Shown: positions 54,736 through 64,000 of the stretch, piece after piece
Layout of the letters: every line of letters begins with the position of its first letter
Position numbering within the stretch: the first letter of the stretch is position 1
Notes under the pieces: generated by a model
Told to the model about the DNA's origin: nothing
Databases searched by the model: none
What the model saw: only the letters and a program-made list of their open reading frames with translations
Position numbers and translations under genes: made by a program
Source: Streptomyces sp. V3I8
Lineage (GTDB): Bacteria > Actinomycetota > Actinomycetes > Streptomycetales > Streptomycetaceae
Assembly: GCF_030817535.1 (NCBI RefSeq)
Contig: NZ_JAUSZL010000002.1
Location: 6,014,001 to 6,078,000, forward strand
Reading direction: 5' to 3'
Length of the DNA: 64,000 nt

Positions 54736-55941
54736 ATGCGGGTGTTGCTGTCCACGTACGGCACGCGGGGCGACGTCGAACCGCTGGTCGCGCTCGCGGT
54801 GCGGTTGCGGGAACTCGGCGTGCAGGTGCGGATGTGCGCCCCGCCCGACGAGGAGTTCGCGCGCCGGCTGGCCGGTCTCGGTGTGGACCTGGTGCCGGTC
54901 GGGCCACCGGTGAAGGAGCTGATGCGCGGGGCGGGTGTGCCGTCGGCGGCGGACCTGGCCCGGTACCGGGCCGAGATGCTCGACGCGCAGTTCGACATCT
55001 TCCCCGCGGCGGCCGACGGATGCGACGCGCTGGTGGCGGCCGGGCTGGCGCAGATCGCCGCGCGGTCCGTGGCCGAGGCCGCGGGCATCCGGTACGTGTA
55101 CACGTGTTACGCGGCGGTCAACCTGCCGTCGCCCTACCATGCGCCGCCGCCGCGGCCGGGCTGGCCGGAGCCGGCGGCGAGCGACAACCTGGCGCTGTGG
55201 GGACTGGACGCCGAGAACGTGAACGCGCAGTTCCGCGAACCACTCAACGGCCACCGGGCGTCGCTCGGCCTGCCCCCGGTGGACAACGTCCGCGACCACG
55301 TCTACAGCGACCGGCCGTGGCTGGCGGCGGACCCGGTCCTGGGGGCGTGGCGCGGGACCCCGGGCCTCGACGTGACCCAGACCGGTGCGTGGTTCCTGCC
55401 GGACGAACGTCCCCTCCCCGCCGACCTGTCGGCGTTCCTGGACGCGGGCACCCCGCCGGTCTACGTCGGCTTCGGCAGCATGACCCCGGCGCCGGACATC
55501 GCCCGCAGGGCCGTCGAGGCGATCCGCGCGCAGGGCCACCGCGTACTCGTCTCCCGCGGCTGGGCCGGCCTGGACCTGGCCGGCGACCGGGACGACTGCT
55601 TCGCCGTCGGCGAGGTCAGCCACCAGAGCCTGTTCCCCCGGGTGGCCGCCGTGGTGCACCACGGCGGCGCCGGCACGACGGTGACGGCCGCCCGCGCGGG
55701 CGCGCCACAGGTGGTGGTGCCTCTCCAGCTGGCGGACAACCCGTACTGGGCGAGCCGGGTGGCGGCCCTGGACGTCGGCGCGGCACTCGACGGCGCGACC
55801 CTGACCGACGACGACCTGGACGTCGCGGTCAAGACGGTCCTGGCACCGCAGACGCGGGCACGGGCGGAGGCACTGGGGGCCAGGATCCACACCGACGGCG
55901 CGGCGGTCGCCGCGCGCCTGCTGCACGAGGCCCTCCGGTGA
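54736..55941 (+). CDS. GT1-family glycosyltransferase
   Basis: 401 residues. The N-terminal acceptor domain begins VLLSTYGTRGDVEPLVALAVRL, typical of macrolide and glycopeptide glycosyltransferases (TxGTRGDVxP). The donor part has GFGSMTPAPDIARR and FPRVAAVVHHGGAGTTVTAARAGAPQVVVPLQLADNPYWASRV, containing the HHGGAGT nucleotide-sugar motif. It transfers an NDP-sugar to a lipid or natural product. The GTG of the cupin gene overlaps its stop (GTGA), so the two are coupled. Confidence 0.93.
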   Translation: MRVLLSTYGTRGDVEPLVALAVRLRELGVQVRMCAPPDEEFARRLAGLGVDLVPVGPPVKELMRGAGVPSAADLARYRAEMLDAQFDIFPAAADGCDALVAAGLAQIAARSVAEAAGIRYVYTCYAAVNLPSPYHAPPPRPGWPEPAASDNLALWGLDAENVNAQFREPLNGHRASLGLPPVDNVRDHVYSDRPWLAADPVLGAWRGTPGLDVTQTGAWFLPDERPLPADLSAFLDAGTPPVYVGFGSMTPAPDIARRAVEAIRAQGHRVLVSRGWAGLDLAGDRDDCFAVGEVSHQSLFPRVAAVVHHGGAGTTVTAARAGAPQVVVPLQLADNPYWASRVAALDVGAALDGATLTDDDLDVAVKTVLAPQTRARAEALGARIHTDGAAVAARLLHEALR

Positions 55942-57382: not shown

Positions 57383-58237
57383 TCACGGAAGCGGCGTGAC
57401 GGGCGCCGCGCCGTCCGGCTCCTCGAACGTGACCGGCGTCTCGAAGGCCGCCCGCCGCGTCGCCCGGCGCAGCGCCTTGAGGACAGTCGCGCCCAGGGTG
57501 AGCGTCAGGACGACCGTCACCGTCGCCCGGCCCAGGTCCCAGCCCAGCGAGGTGGCCAGGCAGTACGCCACGAAACGGGCCAGGTTGGTGTGCACCGCGT
57601 CCCGCGCGTCGAAGGCGACGTTCGACGACAGCGCGTCCATGAAGGGCCATCCGGCCAGGTTCATGAACGTGCCGTACGCGAAGGCCGCGAGGAAGCCGTA
57701 CGCCGCGAGCATCGCCAGCTCGCCCCGGCCGCGCAGCCGGTCGGGACCCGGCAGCAGCCCCGCGCCCATCGTGAACCAGCCCATGGAGAGCATCTGGAAC
57801 GGCATCCACGGCCCGACCCCGCCCGTGAGCAGCGCGGACGCGAACATCGTGACCGACCCCAGCACGAAGCCGAACCCCGGCCCCAGCACCCGCCCGCTCA
57901 GCACCATCAGGAAGAACATCGGCTCGATGCCCGCCGTACCGGCGCCGATCGGCCGCAGCGCGGCCCCGGTCGCGGCCAGTACCCCGAGCATGGCCACCGC
58001 CTTGGGGCCCAGGCCCGATTCGGAGATCGTCGCCGCGACGACCCCGACCAGCAGCACCAGCAGCCCGGCGAACAGCCAGGGCGCGTCCTGCGCGTGCGCG
58101 CCCACCTGCGAGGTCGGACCGCTGAAGAAGGGCCAGGTGAGCGCGGCGAGACCGATCGCCCCGACCAGGACGAGCGCGGCGACGGAACGGGGTCCCAGCC
58201 GGATGGGACGCGCCTGGGGCCGGGGCCGGGCGCTCAT
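57383..58237 (-). CDS. ECF transporter substrate-binding (S) component
   Basis: 284 residues from ATG 58237, overlapping the stop of the ABC gene by ATGA. Six to seven hydrophobic helices: VAALVLVGAIGLAALTWPFF, WLFAGLLVLLVGVVAATI, AVAMLGVLAATGAALRPIG, IEPMFFLMVLSGRVLGPGFGFVLG and so on. It fits the CbrT/CblS type of S component which binds the substrate in the membrane. Position in the riboswitch operon suggests cobalamin, cobinamide or a cobalt-related precursor. The C-terminal tail is rich in Pro and Val. Confidence 0.85.
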   Translation of the reverse strand: MSARPRPQARPIRLGPRSVAALVLVGAIGLAALTWPFFSGPTSQVGAHAQDAPWLFAGLLVLLVGVVAATISESGLGPKAVAMLGVLAATGAALRPIGAGTAGIEPMFFLMVLSGRVLGPGFGFVLGSVTMFASALLTGGVGPWMPFQMLSMGWFTMGAGLLPGPDRLRGRGELAMLAAYGFLAAFAYGTFMNLAGWPFMDALSSNVAFDARDAVHTNLARFVAYCLATSLGWDLGRATVTVVLTLTLGATVLKALRRATRRAAFETPVTFEEPDGAAPVTPLP

Positions 58238-60048
58238 GGATGCGCCCCTTCCGCCGGCCCGGGTTCGCCCAGCGCCTCGCGCACCTGGGACACGGTCAGC
58301 CACTTCTGCGGGGCCAGGACCTTGGTGACCTGCGGCGCGAAGGACGGGGAGGCGACGACAACCTCGGCCGTCGGGCCGTCGGCCACCGGCTCGCCGTCGG
58401 CGAGGATCACGACCCGGTGGGAGAGCTCGGCGGCCAGCTCGACGTCATGGGTGGCCAGGACGATGGCACGGCCCTCGGCCGCGAGCGTCCGCAACAGGGT
58501 GACCAGGCGCGACTTGGCCGCGTAGTCGAGGCCGCGGGTCGGCTCGTCGAGGAGGATCAGGGGCGGCCGGGCCGTCAGGACGACCGCCAGGGCCAGGGTG
58601 AGCCGCTGGCCCTCGGACAGATCCCGCGGATGAGTGCCGTCCCCGATGCCCGGCAGCAGCTCCGACACCAGGGCCCGGCAGGTGCCCGGCCCGGCGCCCG
58701 CGTCGGCGTCCGCCGCCGCGCACTCGCCGGCCACCGTGTCCGCGTACAGCAGGTCCCGGGGCTCCTGCGGTACGAGGCCGACGTGGCGGATCAGCTCACC
58801 GGGCGCCGTGCGGTGGGGCCGGAGTCCGCCCACGCGGACCGAGCCGGCCGACGGGGGGACGAGGCCGGCCAGGGCCGAGAGCAGGGTCGACTTGCCGGCG
58901 CCGTTGCGGCCCATGAGCGCGACGGTCTCGCCGGGGGCGACGGTCAGGTCGACGTCGTGGAGCACTTCGGTGCGGCCCCGGCGGACGGCGAGACCGGTGA
59001 CCACCGCCGGGTGGGGCGCGGCGGTCGTGCCGGTCGCGTCGGTCGTACCGGCCGGGCCGGTGGTGCCGGGTGTCGTGGCCGGGCGCCTCCGGAAGAGCCG
59101 TGGGCGGCGGGAGGCCGGCGCACCGCCCTCCGCCGCCTCGCCTTTCGCCGCGTCACCCTCCGTCGCACCGCCTTCCGGCACCCGTACCGGCGGGGCTGCG
59201 GGGCCGGGGGCGCCCGTCCCCCCGTACGGGAGCCCCTCCAGGCGTTCGCGCAGGGCGCCCGCCCTGCGCCGGGCGTCCCGGACCGTCAGCGGCAGGGGTG
59301 TCCAGCCGCCGAGCCGGCCCAGGGCCACCACCGGCGGGTGGACCGGGGACACCGCCATGACCTCGGCGGGGGTGCCGAGCGTCAGCGGGGCGCCCGGCGA
59401 CGGGAGGAGGGCGACGCGGTCGGCGTACTGCACGACGCGTTCCAGGCGGTGTTCGGCCATCAGGACCGTCGTGCCGAGGTCGTGGACGAGGCGCTGCAGG
59501 ACGGCGAGCACCTCCTCGGCGGCGGCCGGGTCGAGGGCCGAGGTCGGCTCGTCGAGGACCAGAACCTGGGGGTGCGGGGTGAGGACCGAGCCGATCGCGA
59601 CCCGCTGCTGCTGTCCGCCGGAGAGCGTGGCGATGGGGCGGTCGCGCAGGTCGGCGAGGCCGAGCAGGTCCAGGGTCTCCTCCACGCGGCGGCGCATCAC
59701 GTCGGGGGCGAGGCCCAACGACTCCATCCCGTAGGCGAGTTCGTCCTCGACCGTGTCCGTGACGAAGTGGGAGAGGGGGTCCTGGCCCACCGTGCCGACC
59801 AGGTCGGCCAGCTCGCGGGGCTTGTGCGTGCGGGTGTCACGGCCCGCGACCGTCACGCGCCCGCGCAGGGTGCCGCCCGTGAAGTGCGGGACCAGTCCGC
59901 CCACCGCGCCCAGGAGCGTCGACTTGCCGACCCCGGACGGTCCGATCAGCAACACCAACTCGCCCTCCGGGACGGTCAGTTCGATGTTGCGGACGGTGGG
60001 CCCGGCCGCCCCGTCGTACGTCACGGAGACGTCCTCGAAGCGGATCAT
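58234..60048 (-). CDS. ECF transporter energising ATPase with two ABC domains
   Basis: 604 residues from ATG 60048 with AAGGAG five bases upstream; the much longer open frame is antisense-free but unbiased. Domain 1 has Walker A GPSGVGKST, signature LSGGQQQRVAIGS and Walker B VLVLDEPTSALD. Domain 2 (from about 370) has GRNGAGKST, an altered signature LSEGQRLTLALA and LILLDEPTRGLD. Between them is a Gly/Ala/Pro/Glu-rich linker (VPEGGATEGDAAKGEAAEGG). It corresponds to fused EcfA and EcfA'. ATGA overlaps join it to the T component and S component genes on both sides. Confidence 0.95.
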   Translation of the reverse strand: MIRFEDVSVTYDGAAGPTVRNIELTVPEGELVLLIGPSGVGKSTLLGAVGGLVPHFTGGTLRGRVTVAGRDTRTHKPRELADLVGTVGQDPLSHFVTDTVEDELAYGMESLGLAPDVMRRRVEETLDLLGLADLRDRPIATLSGGQQQRVAIGSVLTPHPQVLVLDEPTSALDPAAAEEVLAVLQRLVHDLGTTVLMAEHRLERVVQYADRVALLPSPGAPLTLGTPAEVMAVSPVHPPVVALGRLGGWTPLPLTVRDARRRAGALRERLEGLPYGGTGAPGPAAPPVRVPEGGATEGDAAKGEAAEGGAPASRRPRLFRRRPATTPGTTGPAGTTDATGTTAAPHPAVVTGLAVRRGRTEVLHDVDLTVAPGETVALMGRNGAGKSTLLSALAGLVPPSAGSVRVGGLRPHRTAPGELIRHVGLVPQEPRDLLYADTVAGECAAADADAGAGPGTCRALVSELLPGIGDGTHPRDLSEGQRLTLALAVVLTARPPLILLDEPTRGLDYAAKSRLVTLLRTLAAEGRAIVLATHDVELAAELSHRVVILADGEPVADGPTAEVVVASPSFAPQVTKVLAPQKWLTVSQVREALGEPGPAEGAHP

Positions 60049-61214
60049 GAAGGCTCCTTGCCGGTGTCTTGTGCGATGTCGGGTGCCGGGGCGACGAAGG
60101 CCGGGAGCAGGCCGAGCAGGACCGCAGCCGCGGGCCACAGCGGAAGCGTCGGTGCCGTCAGCGGGACGACGCCGGGATGCAGGGCCGCGGCGGCGTACGC
60201 GTCGTGGGCGGCGTACAGGATCAGCAGCCCCGCGACGGCCGCGCCGGACGCGGCGACGAGCCAGGCGCGTACGCCCCACGCGTCCGGCCGGTACCGGGTG
60301 CGCAGCGAGCGGCGCCCGCCGAGCCACAGGCCGCCGAGGGCCGCGGCGAGTCCGGCGAGCAGCACGGGCACGCCGTAGCTGCCGCCCTCCGCGGTGAGCA
60401 GGCCGTACGTGCCCGCGCAGACCCCGACCAGACCGCCCAGGGTGAGCGCGGCGGTGGTCCGGCGGACGGCGGGCGGCACTTCGGCGGAGCGGCCGTAACC
60501 GCGCGCGTCCATCGCCGCGGCGAGGGCCACCGAACGTTCCAGCGCGCCCTCCAGGACCGGCAGCCCGACCTGGAGCAGGCCGCGCACGCCGTGGTCGGGC
60601 CGGCCGCGCAGCCGCCGGGCCGCGCGCAGTCGCTGGACGTCCGCGATCAGGCTCGGGGCGAAGGTGAGGGCGACCACCACGGCCACGCCCGCCTCGTACA
60701 GGGCGCCCGGCAGGGACTTGAGGAGGCGGGCCGGGTTCGCGAGGGCGTTCGCGGCGCCCACGCAGATGAGCAGGGCGGCGAGTTTCAGGCCGTCGTAGAG
60801 CGCGAAGACCAGGCCCTCGGCGGTGACCCGGCCCCCCACGCGGATGCCCTGCGCCCAGTCGGGGAGCGGGAGTTCGGGAAGGGTGACGAGGGTGTGCGTA
60901 CCAGGAACGGGTGAGCCGAGGAGGACGGCGAAGGCCAGCCGGATGCCGAGCACGGTGAGCGCGAGCTTCACGAAGGCGCCGTAGGAGCGTGCCCAGGGGG
61001 CCTGCGTCCGGCGCGCCGCCACCACGTGACCGGCCACGCCGATGAGGAGGGCGAGCAGGAGGGGGTTCGTGGTCCGGGACGCGGCGGTCCCGAGCCCGAG
61101 GGCCCAGATCCACCAGGCGCCGGGGTGGAGGGCGTTGGTACGGGTCGCGCGCGGGGCACGCAGTCGTCGCAGGACTCCTGCCGGGCCCGGGCGGACCTTC
61201 TCGCCGGTGGTCAT
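60045..61214 (-). CDS. ECF transporter T component (CbiQ/EcfT family)
   Basis: 389 residues from ATG 61214. About 8 hydrophobic segments: PGAWWIWALGLGTAASRTTNPLLL, VFALYDGLKLAALLICVG and so on. The coupling helix has the Ala-Arg-Gly motif in AAAMDARGYGR, which contacts the ATPase. It is longer than usual EcfT (about 260) because of four extra C-terminal helices (VPVLLAGLAAALGGLWLGG to AAAVLLGLLPAFVAP). The ATGA overlap with the ABC gene and 13-base spacing from the SCO2322-family gene confirm the operon. Confidence 0.92.
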   Translation of the reverse strand: MTTGEKVRPGPAGVLRRLRAPRATRTNALHPGAWWIWALGLGTAASRTTNPLLLALLIGVAGHVVAARRTQAPWARSYGAFVKLALTVLGIRLAFAVLLGSPVPGTHTLVTLPELPLPDWAQGIRVGGRVTAEGLVFALYDGLKLAALLICVGAANALANPARLLKSLPGALYEAGVAVVVALTFAPSLIADVQRLRAARRLRGRPDHGVRGLLQVGLPVLEGALERSVALAAAMDARGYGRSAEVPPAVRRTTAALTLGGLVGVCAGTYGLLTAEGGSYGVPVLLAGLAAALGGLWLGGRRSLRTRYRPDAWGVRAWLVAASGAAVAGLLILYAAHDAYAAAALHPGVVPLTAPTLPLWPAAAVLLGLLPAFVAPAPDIAQDTGKEPS

Positions 61215-61227
61215 GGTGCGTGTCCCG

Positions 61228-61902
61228 TCAGCCGCGGCGTCGGCGGGCCCGCCAGACCGTGGCCGCGGCCAGTACGGCCACGGCGGCGATCCCGGCCACC
61301 AGGCCCACCGAGGGCCCGCCATCGCCCCCGGACCCGCTCACCGCGCGGGGCGGGGCGGTGGCCTCCGGACGGTCGTCCGACACCGGCTCGCCGCACCCGG
61401 TGCGGGGGTAGCCGGCGATGGCGCACAGCAGGGCGTTCGTGTCGTACCGCAGCGGCTCGGCGACGGAGGCGAGGGCGTCCGCGGTCGTCGCGTCCTCGTC
61501 GACGCGGGCGCACACCGTGCGCGGGCTCGGGTCCGGCGGTGTCGAACCGGCCGGCGCGTCCGCGGCCGTACCGAAGTCCAGGACGAGGGCGACCCGTTTC
61601 GTCCCCTCGCGTGCGGGCGTCCCCGCGCAGACGGCCGCGAAGCCGGCCTTCCCGCGCGGCTTCGCCGAGTCCTTCGAGTCCTCGCTCACCGAGAAGCGGA
61701 ACCCCTGGACGTCGCCGTCGGAGGGCCGCGCGGTCGACGGGCCCTGCGTCGCGTACACCCACGTGCCGGCGGCGGATTCGCGGTCCCAGAAGGACCAGTA
61801 GCGGTAGCCGGCCGCCCGGGCCTGCCCCGCCGCACCGAGCACGGCGAGCAGGAGGGCCGGGACCAGGGCCAGGACCAGCAGGGCCGGGCGGCCGCGGGTC
61901 AC
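61228..61902 (-). CDS. SCO2322-family secreted protein, single C-terminal anchor
   Basis: 224 residues from GTG 61902, overlapping the previous stop by GTGA. Signal sequence GRPALLVLALVPALLLAVLGAAGQARA is followed by GYRYWSFWDRESAAGTWVYATQGPSTARP and DGDVQGFRFSVSED, the SCO2322 motif; aromatic residues resemble the DUF4430 beta fold. A Cys pair (LLCAIAGYPRTGCGEP) may form a disulphide. The end has a helix (VGLVAGIAAVAVLAAATVW) and RARRRRG, the membrane anchor. Gene order between the barrel protein and the T component implies a role in capturing the ligand. Confidence 0.85.
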   Translation of the reverse strand: MTRGRPALLVLALVPALLLAVLGAAGQARAAGYRYWSFWDRESAAGTWVYATQGPSTARPSDGDVQGFRFSVSEDSKDSAKPRGKAGFAAVCAGTPAREGTKRVALVLDFGTAADAPAGSTPPDPSPRTVCARVDEDATTADALASVAEPLRYDTNALLCAIAGYPRTGCGEPVSDDRPEATAPPRAVSGSGGDGGPSVGLVAGIAAVAVLAAATVWRARRRRG

Positions 61903-63203
61903 GGCTGCTGCTTCTTGGTGCGGCCGCTCAGGAGGAAGCCGATGCCGATGCCGCCGACCAGGCCGACGCCGACGATCCACCAGACGCTGACCCCGCCGTC
62001 GCCGTCCTCGTCCTCCTTGCCGTCCTCGTTGTCCTTGTCGCCCTTGTCGGCGGCCGATGTGCCGGTGGCCTCGGCGGCCGGGCCGGTCGCGCCGAGCTGC
62101 TTCACCAGGTCGGCGCCGCCGAAGTCGCGCGGGTCCGCTCCGGTGGCGTGCGCCGCGAAGATCAGCTGCGCGTACGCGGCCGGGCCGCTCCGCGCCGCCC
62201 AGTCGCCCGACTCCTTCTTCAGCCAGGCCAGGGACCTGCCGGCGTCGGCCGTCCGGCCCGCCGCCGCCAGCGCGACGACCGCGTCGGCGGTGTTGCCGTG
62301 ATCGGGCTGGTCCTCGGCGCCCGCGAGGGCGGACTTCAGGTAGCCGGTCCTCGCCACCGCGCCCGCGAGATACCCGGCGCCGTTGGCCGCCGCCTGCCCG
62401 GCGGTCGGGGAGTCGCCGCCCGCGCACTTCGCGGCCCCGGCGGACTTCCCGGCGGATCCCCCGTCGTCCTCGGCGTCCGCCGCCAGGCCTTCGCCGAGCG
62501 CGCCCAGGACGCCCGCCGCGGTGGCGTCGGCGTTCGCCGCGAGCCCGCCCTTCTTGTCGGGCTGGAAGGCGAACGCGCCCGCGCCGTCCTCGTCGCAGGG
62601 GACGGACAGGCCGCGCAGGGCGTCGTACGGCGTCCGGTCGTCCTTCGAGCGCAGGTCCTGCGTGTCGGTGCCGGCGGCCTCCAGGGCGCCGATCACGACG
62701 GATGTCGAGTTGGTGTCGGTGGCCCCGCCGGGGAGGTAGCCCCAGCCGCCGTCCTCGTTCTGCGCGGACTTCAGCCACTTCACGGCCGCGCCGCTCACGG
62801 CGTCGTCGGCGTCGAGCGCCTCCAGGGCCTGCAGGGCGGCGGCGGTGCTGTTCGTGTCGGCCTGCGTCCTGGTGTCGCACTTCGCGGCCGGGTCCGCGCG
62901 GTAGGCCGCGAAGCCGCCGTCCGCGCACTGCTGCCCGGTGAGCCAGTCGACGGCCTTCGCGGCGGGCCGCACGCCCACGGTGTGCTGGGCGAGCAGCGCG
63001 AGCGACTGCCGCCAGACACCGTCGTACGTCGGGTCGGTGCTGCCGTACAGGCCTGAGGGGAGCGCCGGGGACGGGGAGGGCGAGGCGGAGGACGAAGCGG
63101 ACGGGGACGGGGAGGGTGACTCGTCGGCGAGGGCGGTCGGCGCGAACGCCGTGCCGATCACGGCGGTGGCGGCCAGGACCACGGCGCTGCGGCGGACAGA
63201 CAT
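61899..63203 (-). CDS. Secreted alpha/alpha-barrel (prenyltransferase/squalene-oxidase-repeat) protein
   Basis: 434 residues from ATG 63203. Signal peptide (RRSAVVLAATAVIGTAFAPTALA), a Ser/Pro linker, then repeats typical of the terpenoid-cyclase barrel: WLTGQQCADGGFAAYRADP, WLKSAQNEDGGWGYLPGG, TDTNSTSVVIGALEAAG, YLKSALAGAEDQPDHGNTADAVVALAAAGR. It ends in a membrane helix (VWWIVGVGLVGGIGIGFLLS) and RTKKQQP. This is not a likely enzyme: animal cobalamin-binding proteins (intrinsic factor, transcobalamin) use the same barrel. As the first gene behind a B12 riboswitch it is probably a surface corrinoid-capture protein. Confidence 0.87.
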   Translation of the reverse strand: MSVRRSAVVLAATAVIGTAFAPTALADESPSPSPSASSSASPSPSPALPSGLYGSTDPTYDGVWRQSLALLAQHTVGVRPAAKAVDWLTGQQCADGGFAAYRADPAAKCDTRTQADTNSTAAALQALEALDADDAVSGAAVKWLKSAQNEDGGWGYLPGGATDTNSTSVVIGALEAAGTDTQDLRSKDDRTPYDALRGLSVPCDEDGAGAFAFQPDKKGGLAANADATAAGVLGALGEGLAADAEDDGGSAGKSAGAAKCAGGDSPTAGQAAANGAGYLAGAVARTGYLKSALAGAEDQPDHGNTADAVVALAAAGRTADAGRSLAWLKKESGDWAARSGPAAYAQLIFAAHATGADPRDFGGADLVKQLGATGPAAEATGTSAADKGDKDNEDGKEDEDGDGGVSVWWIVGVGLVGGIGIGFLLSGRTKKQQP

Positions 63204-63359
63204 GATCGGCGGGTGCCTCTCTGTACTCATCGGCTCGCCGACGGGGGTGCCCCTTCGGCTCGCCCTGCGGGGGGAGCGGCCGGGCAGCCCGGAACCCCGG
63301 GCGGCTCGGCTCCGTATGCCTCGACGGTGCCGGTCACCGGCGGTCCCGGTGACGCGAGC

Positions 63360-63478
63360 CGGTCACGTTCCGTACGGGGCGTTCCGGCTCGCCGCCCAGC
63401 GGGAACGGGGCGGCACACGGCTGCGGGTCAGCGCCGGATTTGCACCGGCTTCCCCCCGTACGGGTGTGATGACGACCT
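63360..63478 (-). ncRNA. Cobalamin riboswitch
   Basis: On the minus strand a typical core is read: GGGAAGCCGGTGCAAATCCG (63434-63453), then GCTGACCCGCAGCCGTG, followed by an actinobacterial variant of the B12 box (GAGCCGGAACGCC, about 63377-63389). These are the conserved features of the adenosylcobalamin riboswitch. The exact ends are estimated. It is placed after the ArsI-type gene and 150 bases before the first gene of the ECF operon, and should lower that operon's expression when B12 is abundant. Confidence 0.88.
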
Positions 63479-63555: not shown

Positions 63556-64000
63556 TCAGCAGCAGCCGGTACCGGCGGCCGCGGATTCGTCCGGGCCGGT
63601 ACAGCACGTGCTCCGGGGCTGCTCGGCGAGCGTGTCGGCGTCGGCCTTGACGACGTACACCTCCCAGGGTTCCCGGCCGGGGCCGTGGACCCACACCTTG
63701 TCCTGGAGGGCGAAGCAGCAGACGGTGTCGCGCTCCACCGCTGTGTCGAGCCCTCGGCCGGCGAGGCGGGCGGTGGCCGCGTGGACGTCTTCGGAGGAGG
63801 TGACTTCCACACCGAGGTGGTCCATGCGCGTCTCGTGCTCGGCCTCGCCCTGGATGAGGACGAGCTTGAGCGGGGGTTCGGCGATGGCGAAGTTGGCGTA
63901 GCCGTCGCGGAGTTTGGCCGGCTCGGTGTCGAACAGCTTGCGGTAGAAGGCGACCGAGGCGTCGAGGTCGGGCACGCGCAGAGCCAGTTGCACACGGGAC
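63556..64000 (-). CDS. ArsI/CadI-family VOC metalloprotein (5' end outside window)
   Basis: At least 147 residues; the frame runs past the right edge (codons SRVQLALRVPDL), so the ATG lies just beyond base 64000. The vicinal-oxygen-chelate domain is complete: VQLALRVPDLDASVAFYRKLF, LVLIQGEAEHETRMDHLGVEV and TVCCFALQDKVWVHGP, with the CC pair that binds trivalent arsenic or cadmium. The C-terminus adds CCTGPDESAAAGTGCC, more thiols. This family cleaves C-As bonds (ArsI) or is cadmium-induced (CadI). Its end is 78 bases upstream of the riboswitch, so the two are distinct units. Confidence 0.88.
   Translation of the reverse strand, partial: SRVQLALRVPDLDASVAFYRKLFDTEPAKLRDGYANFAIAEPPLKLVLIQGEAEHETRMDHLGVEVTSSEDVHAATARLAGRGLDTAVERDTVCCFALQDKVWVHGPGREPWEVYVVKADADTLAEQPRSTCCTGPDESAAAGTGCC

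What the first reader, a model, noticed from the sequence alone, without database searches (positions are those of the whole stretch)
57383..63478. B12-riboswitch operon pairing an intrinsic-factor-like barrel with an ECF transporter
Seen: riboswitch core on the minus strand at 63360-63478, then five tightly linked genes (overlaps of ATGA or GTGA at three junctions): secreted barrel-repeat protein, SCO2322-family protein, EcfT, double ATPase, S component. Known: animal intrinsic factor and transcobalamin have an alpha6/alpha6 barrel followed by a small beta domain; the barrel family is the same one as the prenyltransferase/squalene-oxidase repeats. Inference: the two anchored extracellular proteins bind a corrinoid as a two-part receptor and hand it to the ECF S component, a Gram-positive analogue of the human B12 carrier layout.
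Basis: partly seen in the sequence, partly recalled or inferred. Interest (0 to 1): 0.82.

Follow-up and report, generated by a model that had tools for sequence, protein, structure and literature searches.

The report
Rewired bacterial vitamin B12 catcher operon
A bacterium, probably a Streptomyces, carries a B12-controlled operon whose two surface proteins look like the two halves of the human vitamin B12 carrier, each with its ends circularly swapped, next to a membrane importer that probably takes the vitamin into the cell.

Summary
In detail: a cobalamin riboswitch (RF00174) precedes five tightly packed minus-strand genes: anchored barrel (SCO2321 family), SCO2322-family protein, EcfT, double ATPase, S component. 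The inference gains strong comparative support. Relatives in Actinomycetota and Chloroflexota keep barrel, small beta domain and ECF genes together; a B12 riboswitch is linked in 37 of 61 loci scanned. Natural single-chain barrel-beta fusions exist; one modelled at mean pLDDT 90, and ten transcobalamin chains were its best PDB matches after those of its cell-wall anchor. The beta domain aligns with DUF4430 (E 2.6e-6).

The general idea is not new: bacterial toroid + transcobalamin-like domains beside CbiO/CbiQ genes were predicted to scavenge B12 in 2007 (PMC1796856). New, as far as my searches went, are the Actinomycetota/Chloroflexota branch, the split chains, the double permutation and the riboswitch link. 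Corrinoid binding and hand-over to the S component are inferred, not tested; the model of the window's own beta domain failed (mean pLDDT 45).

The parts
63377..63455 (-). cobalamin riboswitch aptamer core (RF00174), 5' leader of the operon
   Evidence: 37.7 bits, gathering 31.5, model 45-169 of 189
61899..63203 (-). SCO2321-family secreted alpha/alpha barrel protein with C-terminal transmembrane anchor (alternative ATG at 63230); signal peptide and anchor read by eye
   Evidence: NF053823 576 bits; SQHop_cyclase_C E 6e-9
62415..63059 (-). first barrel segment = C-terminal two thirds of the colinear relatives (profile 133-339)
62088..62417 (-). second barrel segment = N-terminal third of the colinear relatives (profile 27-129): circular permutation
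   Evidence: rotation scan
61228..61902 (-). SCO2322-family secreted beta protein with GPS-CTERM tail
   Evidence: NF040672 223 bits; GPS-CTERM 28 bits (residues 196-223)
61624..61815 (-). first beta segment (YRYWSFW...GDVQGFRF) = C-terminal half of the relatives' domain
61381..61623 (-). second beta segment (VALVLDFG...LLCAIAGYPRTGC) = N-terminal half of the relatives' domain: circular permutation
60045..61214 (-). EcfT transmembrane coupling protein (PF02361 CbiQ)
   Evidence: E 3e-7
58234..60048 (-). double ABC ATPase (EcfA-EcfA' fused)
   Evidence: ABC_tran E 1.8e-54, two stretches
57383..58237 (-). ECF substrate-specific S component (PF12822)
   Evidence: E 5.7e-8

Best explanation
This is a cobalamin (B12/corrinoid) uptake operon. 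When cobalamin is scarce the riboswitch lets the operon be expressed. Two exported, C-terminally membrane-anchored proteins, an alpha/alpha barrel and a beta-grasp (transcobalamin-clade SLBB/DUF4430-like) domain, act as the two halves of a transcobalamin/intrinsic-factor-like trap that sandwiches a corrinoid at the cell surface and passes it to the ECF S component; EcfT and the double ATPase drive import. In this window's genus both halves are circularly permuted relative to the colinear, sometimes fused, forms in other bacteria. Shown here: genes, riboswitch, conserved linkage, natural fusions, transcobalamin-like two-domain fold of a fused relative, both permutations by sequence. Inferred: corrinoid binding, joint binding by the two separate chains, hand-over to the S component, the riboswitch's OFF logic.
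For: Riboswitch plus genes. Linkage: of 41 loci (window + 40), 40 hold the beta domain; 30 of 40 hold EcfT+EcfA+S on the same strand with centres within 7 kb, 22 of 40 a barrel; of 72 loci from genome contigs, 71 hold the beta domain, 34 of 71 all three ECF genes, 63 of 71 a barrel (loci were chosen by the beta domain, many contigs are short, and at least six loci are the same contigs in both sets). B12 riboswitch at gathering score, same strand, under 900 nt before the first barrel/beta/EcfT domain in 37 of 61 scanned loci. Barrel+beta in one chain: 15 of 25 aligned proteins barrel first, 2 of 25 beta first (by eye); 10 of 72 loci by profile. Fusion P0241: mean pLDDT 90; Foldseek ranks 12-21 are all transcobalamin, E 3.5e-10 to 4.5e-8, before any terpene cyclase (7.3e-5); intrinsic factor 3kq4 aligned over model residues 37-448. 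Pfam Cobalamin_bind (PF01122) hits 15 of 56 barrels and 9 of 25 aligned proteins at E<=1, best 8.5e-5. Beta alignment versus DUF4430: prob 88.6, E 2.6e-6, 88 columns. Canonical DUF4430 genes lie beside EcfA-type ATPase genes on the same strand in 6 of 9 fetched loci and beside a barrel in 2 of 9, with an RF00174 match upstream (within about 3.3 kb) in 5 of 9 genomes, 3 of them over the cut-off. Permutation.
Confidence: 0.8

Rival explanations
1. The operon is a B12-regulated importer of something other than cobalamin itself (cobinamide or another corrinoid precursor, dimethylbenzimidazole, or cobalt in a carrier), and the extracellular pair binds that ligand.
For: B12 riboswitches also control cobalt uptake: CbiM in this genome has one. 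CbrUVT is glossed in one review as cobyrinate-diamide uptake (PMC8123684, passage). The S component matches no solved S component by sequence.
Against: The S component is PF12822, not CbiM; a transcobalamin-type two-domain fold argues for a corrinoid-sized ligand.
Confidence: 0.15
2. The barrel is an extracellular terpene-cyclase-like or other enzyme, or a cell-wall protein, unrelated in function to the transporter.
For: Closest sequence matches are squalene-hopene cyclases.
Against: The cyclase DxDD motif (recalled) occurs in 7 of 56 barrels and at most once per alignment column; barrels look exported and are linked to ECF genes and fused to the beta domain.
Confidence: 0.04
3. The apparent permutations are alignment artefacts of an internally repetitive barrel and a small beta domain; the proteins are merely divergent.
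For: Alpha/alpha toroids have internal repeats, rotated controls keep much of their score, and the beta optimum is a broad plateau.
Against: Rotation scans peak far from the native ends: barrel 134 to 195.5 bits, beta 40.7 to 60.5 bits (200 shuffles at most 4.8). The sampled controls (4 of 68 barrels, 6 of 73 beta domains) peak at or within 12 residues of their native ends. All 9 genomes of the window's genus examined show swapped barrel order. The beta domain's three invariant cysteines align after permutation.
Confidence: 0.03

Closest known systems
[quoted passage not shown] 2007, PMC1796856; abstract, section 7 part 1, sections 8 and 10, and passages seen; supplement not seen)
   Same: Exported alpha/alpha toroid + transcobalamin-type beta-grasp domain, fused in either order, in operons with CbiO-like ATPase and CbiQ-like membrane protein; predicted to scavenge B12.
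   Different: The parts seen place the clade in low-GC Gram-positives, planctomycetes, some euryarchaea and animals. The searched words riboswitch and permut* occur 0 times in the main text. Here: Actinomycetota and Chloroflexota, separate chains, both domains circularly permuted, riboswitch-linked.
Human transcobalamin / intrinsic factor
   Same: Barrel plus beta domain; fold match of a fused relative over both domains; PF01122 and DUF4430 similarity in relatives.
   Different: Window version is two membrane-anchored chains with permuted connectivity next to an ECF importer; ligand binding untested; domain orientation of the fused model differs.
CbrUVT / ECF-CbrT cobalamin ECF transporters (PMC5997447, PMC6593275, PMC8123684; passages seen)
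   Same: ECF module plus S component associated with B12.
   Different: ECF-CbrT was characterised as a CbrT, EcfT, EcfA, EcfA' complex; here two extracellular proteins are co-operonic. No sequence match of this S component to any solved S component.
NCBIfam SCO2321 family (NF053823) and SCO2322 family (NF040672)
   Same: The window proteins are members.
   Different: Those names carry no function; the SCO2322 model matches colinear relatives mostly as part-domain fragments.

Membership tests
Cobalamin riboswitch RF00174 | covariance-model score above gathering | tested here: met
   37.7 vs 31.5 bits; partial, model 45-169
Transcobalamin/intrinsic-factor-type carrier | alpha/alpha barrel of the PF01122 type | tested here: inconclusive
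   window barrel: SQHop/Prenyltrans, no PF01122 row at E<=1; relatives: PF01122 in 15 of 56 and 9 of 25 at E<=1; fused relative matches TC/IF by fold
Transcobalamin/intrinsic-factor-type carrier | transcobalamin-clade beta-grasp (SLBB/DUF4430) domain | tested here: inconclusive
   window beta aligns over its full length to the relatives' domain only when rotated; those relatives align to DUF4430, E 2.6e-6; own model failed
Transcobalamin/intrinsic-factor-type carrier | barrel then beta domain in one chain, native connectivity | tested here: not met
   two chains, both permuted; met in fused relatives
Transcobalamin/intrinsic-factor-type carrier | binds cobalamin between the two domains | not testable with these tools
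   needs a binding assay or complex structure
ECF transporter, group I | own EcfT, two ATPase domains and S component in one operon | tested here: met
ECF-CbrT cobalamin transporter | S component homologous to CbrT | tested here: inconclusive
   no S-component match in PDB sequences at E<=1 by phmmer
Class II terpene cyclase | conserved DxDD acid motif (recalled) | tested here: not met
   7 of 56 colinear barrels, at most 1 per column

The most novel reading that the evidence does not exclude
An ECF transporter with its own extracellular substrate-binding proteins: a split, membrane-anchored homologue of the human B12 carrier, both halves of which were circularly permuted in separate events, perhaps after tandem duplication (tandem beta domains in Euzebya, tandem barrels in Chloroflexota), so that each half could be anchored by its C-terminus and close over the corrinoid above the S component. 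This would break the textbook rule (recalled) that ECF importers work without soluble binding proteins.
Probability: 0.55. Interest if true: 0.8.

Novelty: new variant of a known kind. Interest (0 to 1): 0.66.

Why it matters
How Gram-positive and Chloroflexota bacteria catch B12 outside the membrane is, to my knowledge, poorly known; one paper calls identification of B12 transport systems in gut genomes an open problem (PMC6593275, passage). The finding gives a testable function to two conserved families with empty names (SCO2321, SCO2322), extends the bacterial relatives of intrinsic factor and transcobalamin into two large phyla, and suggests an ECF importer with dedicated extracellular catchers. 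Two adjacent genes that encode the two halves of one presumed binding site, each circularly permuted, would be an unusual case for protein evolution.

Tried and rejected
Pfam scan of ten relatives found no DUF4430 at E<=1; the link appeared weakly with 21 beta domains (E 0.0015) and clearly with 73. PDB profile searches with beta alignments found no transcobalamin; the DUF4430 alignment found transcobalamin-2 second, E 0.18, not significant. PDB searches with barrel profiles gave terpene cyclases. The structure of the window's SCO2322 domain failed (mean pLDDT 45), so no fold search was run on it. Terpene-cyclase activity was rejected on the DxDD count. A first idea that the two permutations are one event was dropped: L094 has a permuted barrel with a colinear beta domain, and L058 and L087-L090 have a permuted beta domain without a detected barrel. 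Literature (search listings unless said otherwise): no paper for DUF4430+prenyltransferase; one unrelated paper, by title, for the SCO numbers; six for DUF4430, none on bacterial B12 uptake by title; none; capped lists for (20 of 28; 15 of 124); one search found PMC1796856, which is prior art. Only the held open-access library was searched.

Full report
The observation. The window carries a cobalamin riboswitch core at 63377-63455 (-) and, behind it, five minus-strand genes with GTGA/ATGA overlaps at three junctions. They are an SCO2321-family barrel protein with signal peptide and C-terminal anchor (by eye), an SCO2322-family protein with a GPS-CTERM tail, EcfT, a double ABC ATPase and a PF12822 S component. 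The genome has five cobalamin riboswitches; the other four precede a Peripla_BP_2 protein, CbiM, CobD/CbiB and a ribonucleotide reductase. I infer the genus Streptomyces from the named homologues; the genome itself is unnamed.

What the second protein is. A search of 296 genomes of the phylum with the SCO2322 model gave 10 genomes over the cut-off and 44 with a match at E<=0.001; most of the extra matches cover only part of the model. In two genomes both parts lay in one open frame in swapped order. The relatives read [ALVVDTG..C....G..L..A......G..VC.L.GVG...C][YWGYW...W..S..GA......GDVEGW.W], while SCO2322 has the second block first. hhalign of the SCO2322 alignment rotated in silico against the relatives gives E 2.6e-23 over 114 columns; the native order gives 51 columns at E 5.4e-14, a reversed control E 0.32. 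A rotation scan of the window domain against a 73-member profile rises from 40.7 (native) to 60.5 bits, with a broad optimum around residue 94; 200 shuffles reach at most 4.8, and 6 sampled leave-one-out controls (of 73) peak at their native ends.

What the first protein is. A profile of six colinear barrels matches the barrel of every genome of the window's genus examined (9 of 9 genomes; loci L005-L014) as two pieces in swapped order. The rotation scan rises from 134 to 195.5 bits with a broad optimum at about residues 249-273 (numbered from the ATG at 63230), where the sequence looks like a linker; 4 sampled controls (of 68) peak at or within 12 residues of their native ends. So both neighbours are circularly permuted. 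The events look separate: L094 has a permuted barrel with a colinear beta domain; the beta domain is permuted in 10 of 40 beta-bearing loci of the first set (0 of 71 in the second), including L058 and L087-L093, where no barrel was detected. Tandem copies, a plausible intermediate, exist for the beta domain (L051, P0242-P0244) and the barrel (for example L123, L142).

Linkage and fusion. Of 41 loci annotated with home-made profiles, 40 have the beta domain (L065 had been fetched for a DUF4430 hit), 30 of 40 have EcfT+EcfA+S on the same strand within 7 kb, and 22 of 40 a barrel; 11 of those 30 have no detected barrel. Of 72 loci from genome contigs, many of them Chloroflexota by title, 71 have the beta domain, 34 of 71 all three ECF genes and 63 of 71 a barrel. 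Single-chain barrel+beta proteins occur with CWB2 or SLH domains: of 27 hits, 25 were aligned (P0264 and P0267 left out); 15 of 25 carry barrel then beta, 2 of 25 beta then barrel (by eye); 10 of 72 loci carry fusions by profile. Canonical DUF4430 genes in other lineages of the phylum sit beside EcfA-type genes in 6 of 9 loci and beside a barrel in 2 of 9 (families).

Riboswitch. Of the 112 long loci held (L048-L067, L087-L178), 61 were scanned in seven Rfam calls; those were picked for having ECF genes and upstream sequence. In 37 of 61 a B12 riboswitch (RF00174, or AdoCbl-II in L095) reaches gathering score on the same strand within 900 nt of the first barrel/beta/EcfT domain (count). In whole-genome searches at E<=1e-3, a match lies within about 2 kb upstream of the beta gene in 12 of 15 genomes: 5 of 8 other genomes of the window's genus and 7 of 7 others; only 4 of those 12 are over Rfam's cut-off. 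Among nine DUF4430 genomes, 5 have any match at E<=1e-3, and in each of the five one lies upstream of the DUF4430 genes (3 over the cut-off).

Mechanism. Most likely: low cobalamin, riboswitch permissive, operon expressed; barrel and beta domain, each anchored, close on a corrinoid as in transcobalamin; the S component takes it and the ECF module imports it. The linkage, fusions and fold are shown in relatives; binding, joint action of separate chains, hand-over and switch logic are inferred.

Relation to the known. Burroughs et al. 2007 (PMC1796856; abstract, section 7 part 1, sections 8 and 10, and passages seen; supplement not seen) already predicted that bacterial toroid + transcobalamin-clade SLBB proteins, in operons with CbiO/CbiQ, scavenge B12, and that animals acquired theirs from low-GC Gram-positives. 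CbrUVT is used as a label for B12 ECF transporters (PMC6593275, PMC8123684, passages) and ECF-CbrT is biochemically characterised (PMC5997447, passages). So the kind is known. The variant (new phyla, split chains, two permutations, riboswitch coupling) I did not find in print, some of which returned capped lists.

Noticed in passing
window 63556-63993 (-): ArsI/CadI-family heavy-metal resistance metalloenzyme directly upstream of the riboswitch, same strand (NF041414).
   Followed up: partly
L048 (G171:C1:3645000-3664900): A genome of the window's genus carries a second, colinear (unpermuted) set beta-EcfT-EcfA-S-barrel followed by a DUF4430 protein, besides its permuted copy (L067).
   Followed up: partly
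L085, L086, L091-L093, L097: Beta domain without a detected barrel; in L085/L086 apparently as a small lipoprotein (by eye), and in L091-L093 and L097 also without detected ECF genes within about 7 kb.
   Followed up: no
L119, L137, L153, L159, L165, L167: Chloroflexota-side loci with two consecutive, diverged beta-domain genes after the barrel.
   Followed up: no
L179-L181: Open frames of 1538-1886 codons with two to three DUF4430 matches next to a small DUF4430 protein and ECF genes.
   Followed up: partly
P0001, P0241 and others: Precomputed Pfam PF28005.1 is assigned to both permuted and colinear members, but the held Pfam copy lacks it, so its name is unknown to me.
   Followed up: partly
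window 54736-55941 (+): Glycosyltransferase resembling rifamycin-inactivating Rgt, below the family cut-off (465 vs 800 bits).
   Followed up: no
NF040672 model: Because of the permutation the SCO2322 model hits most colinear relatives only in part and under its cut-off, so pipelines using it would miss them.
   Followed up: yes
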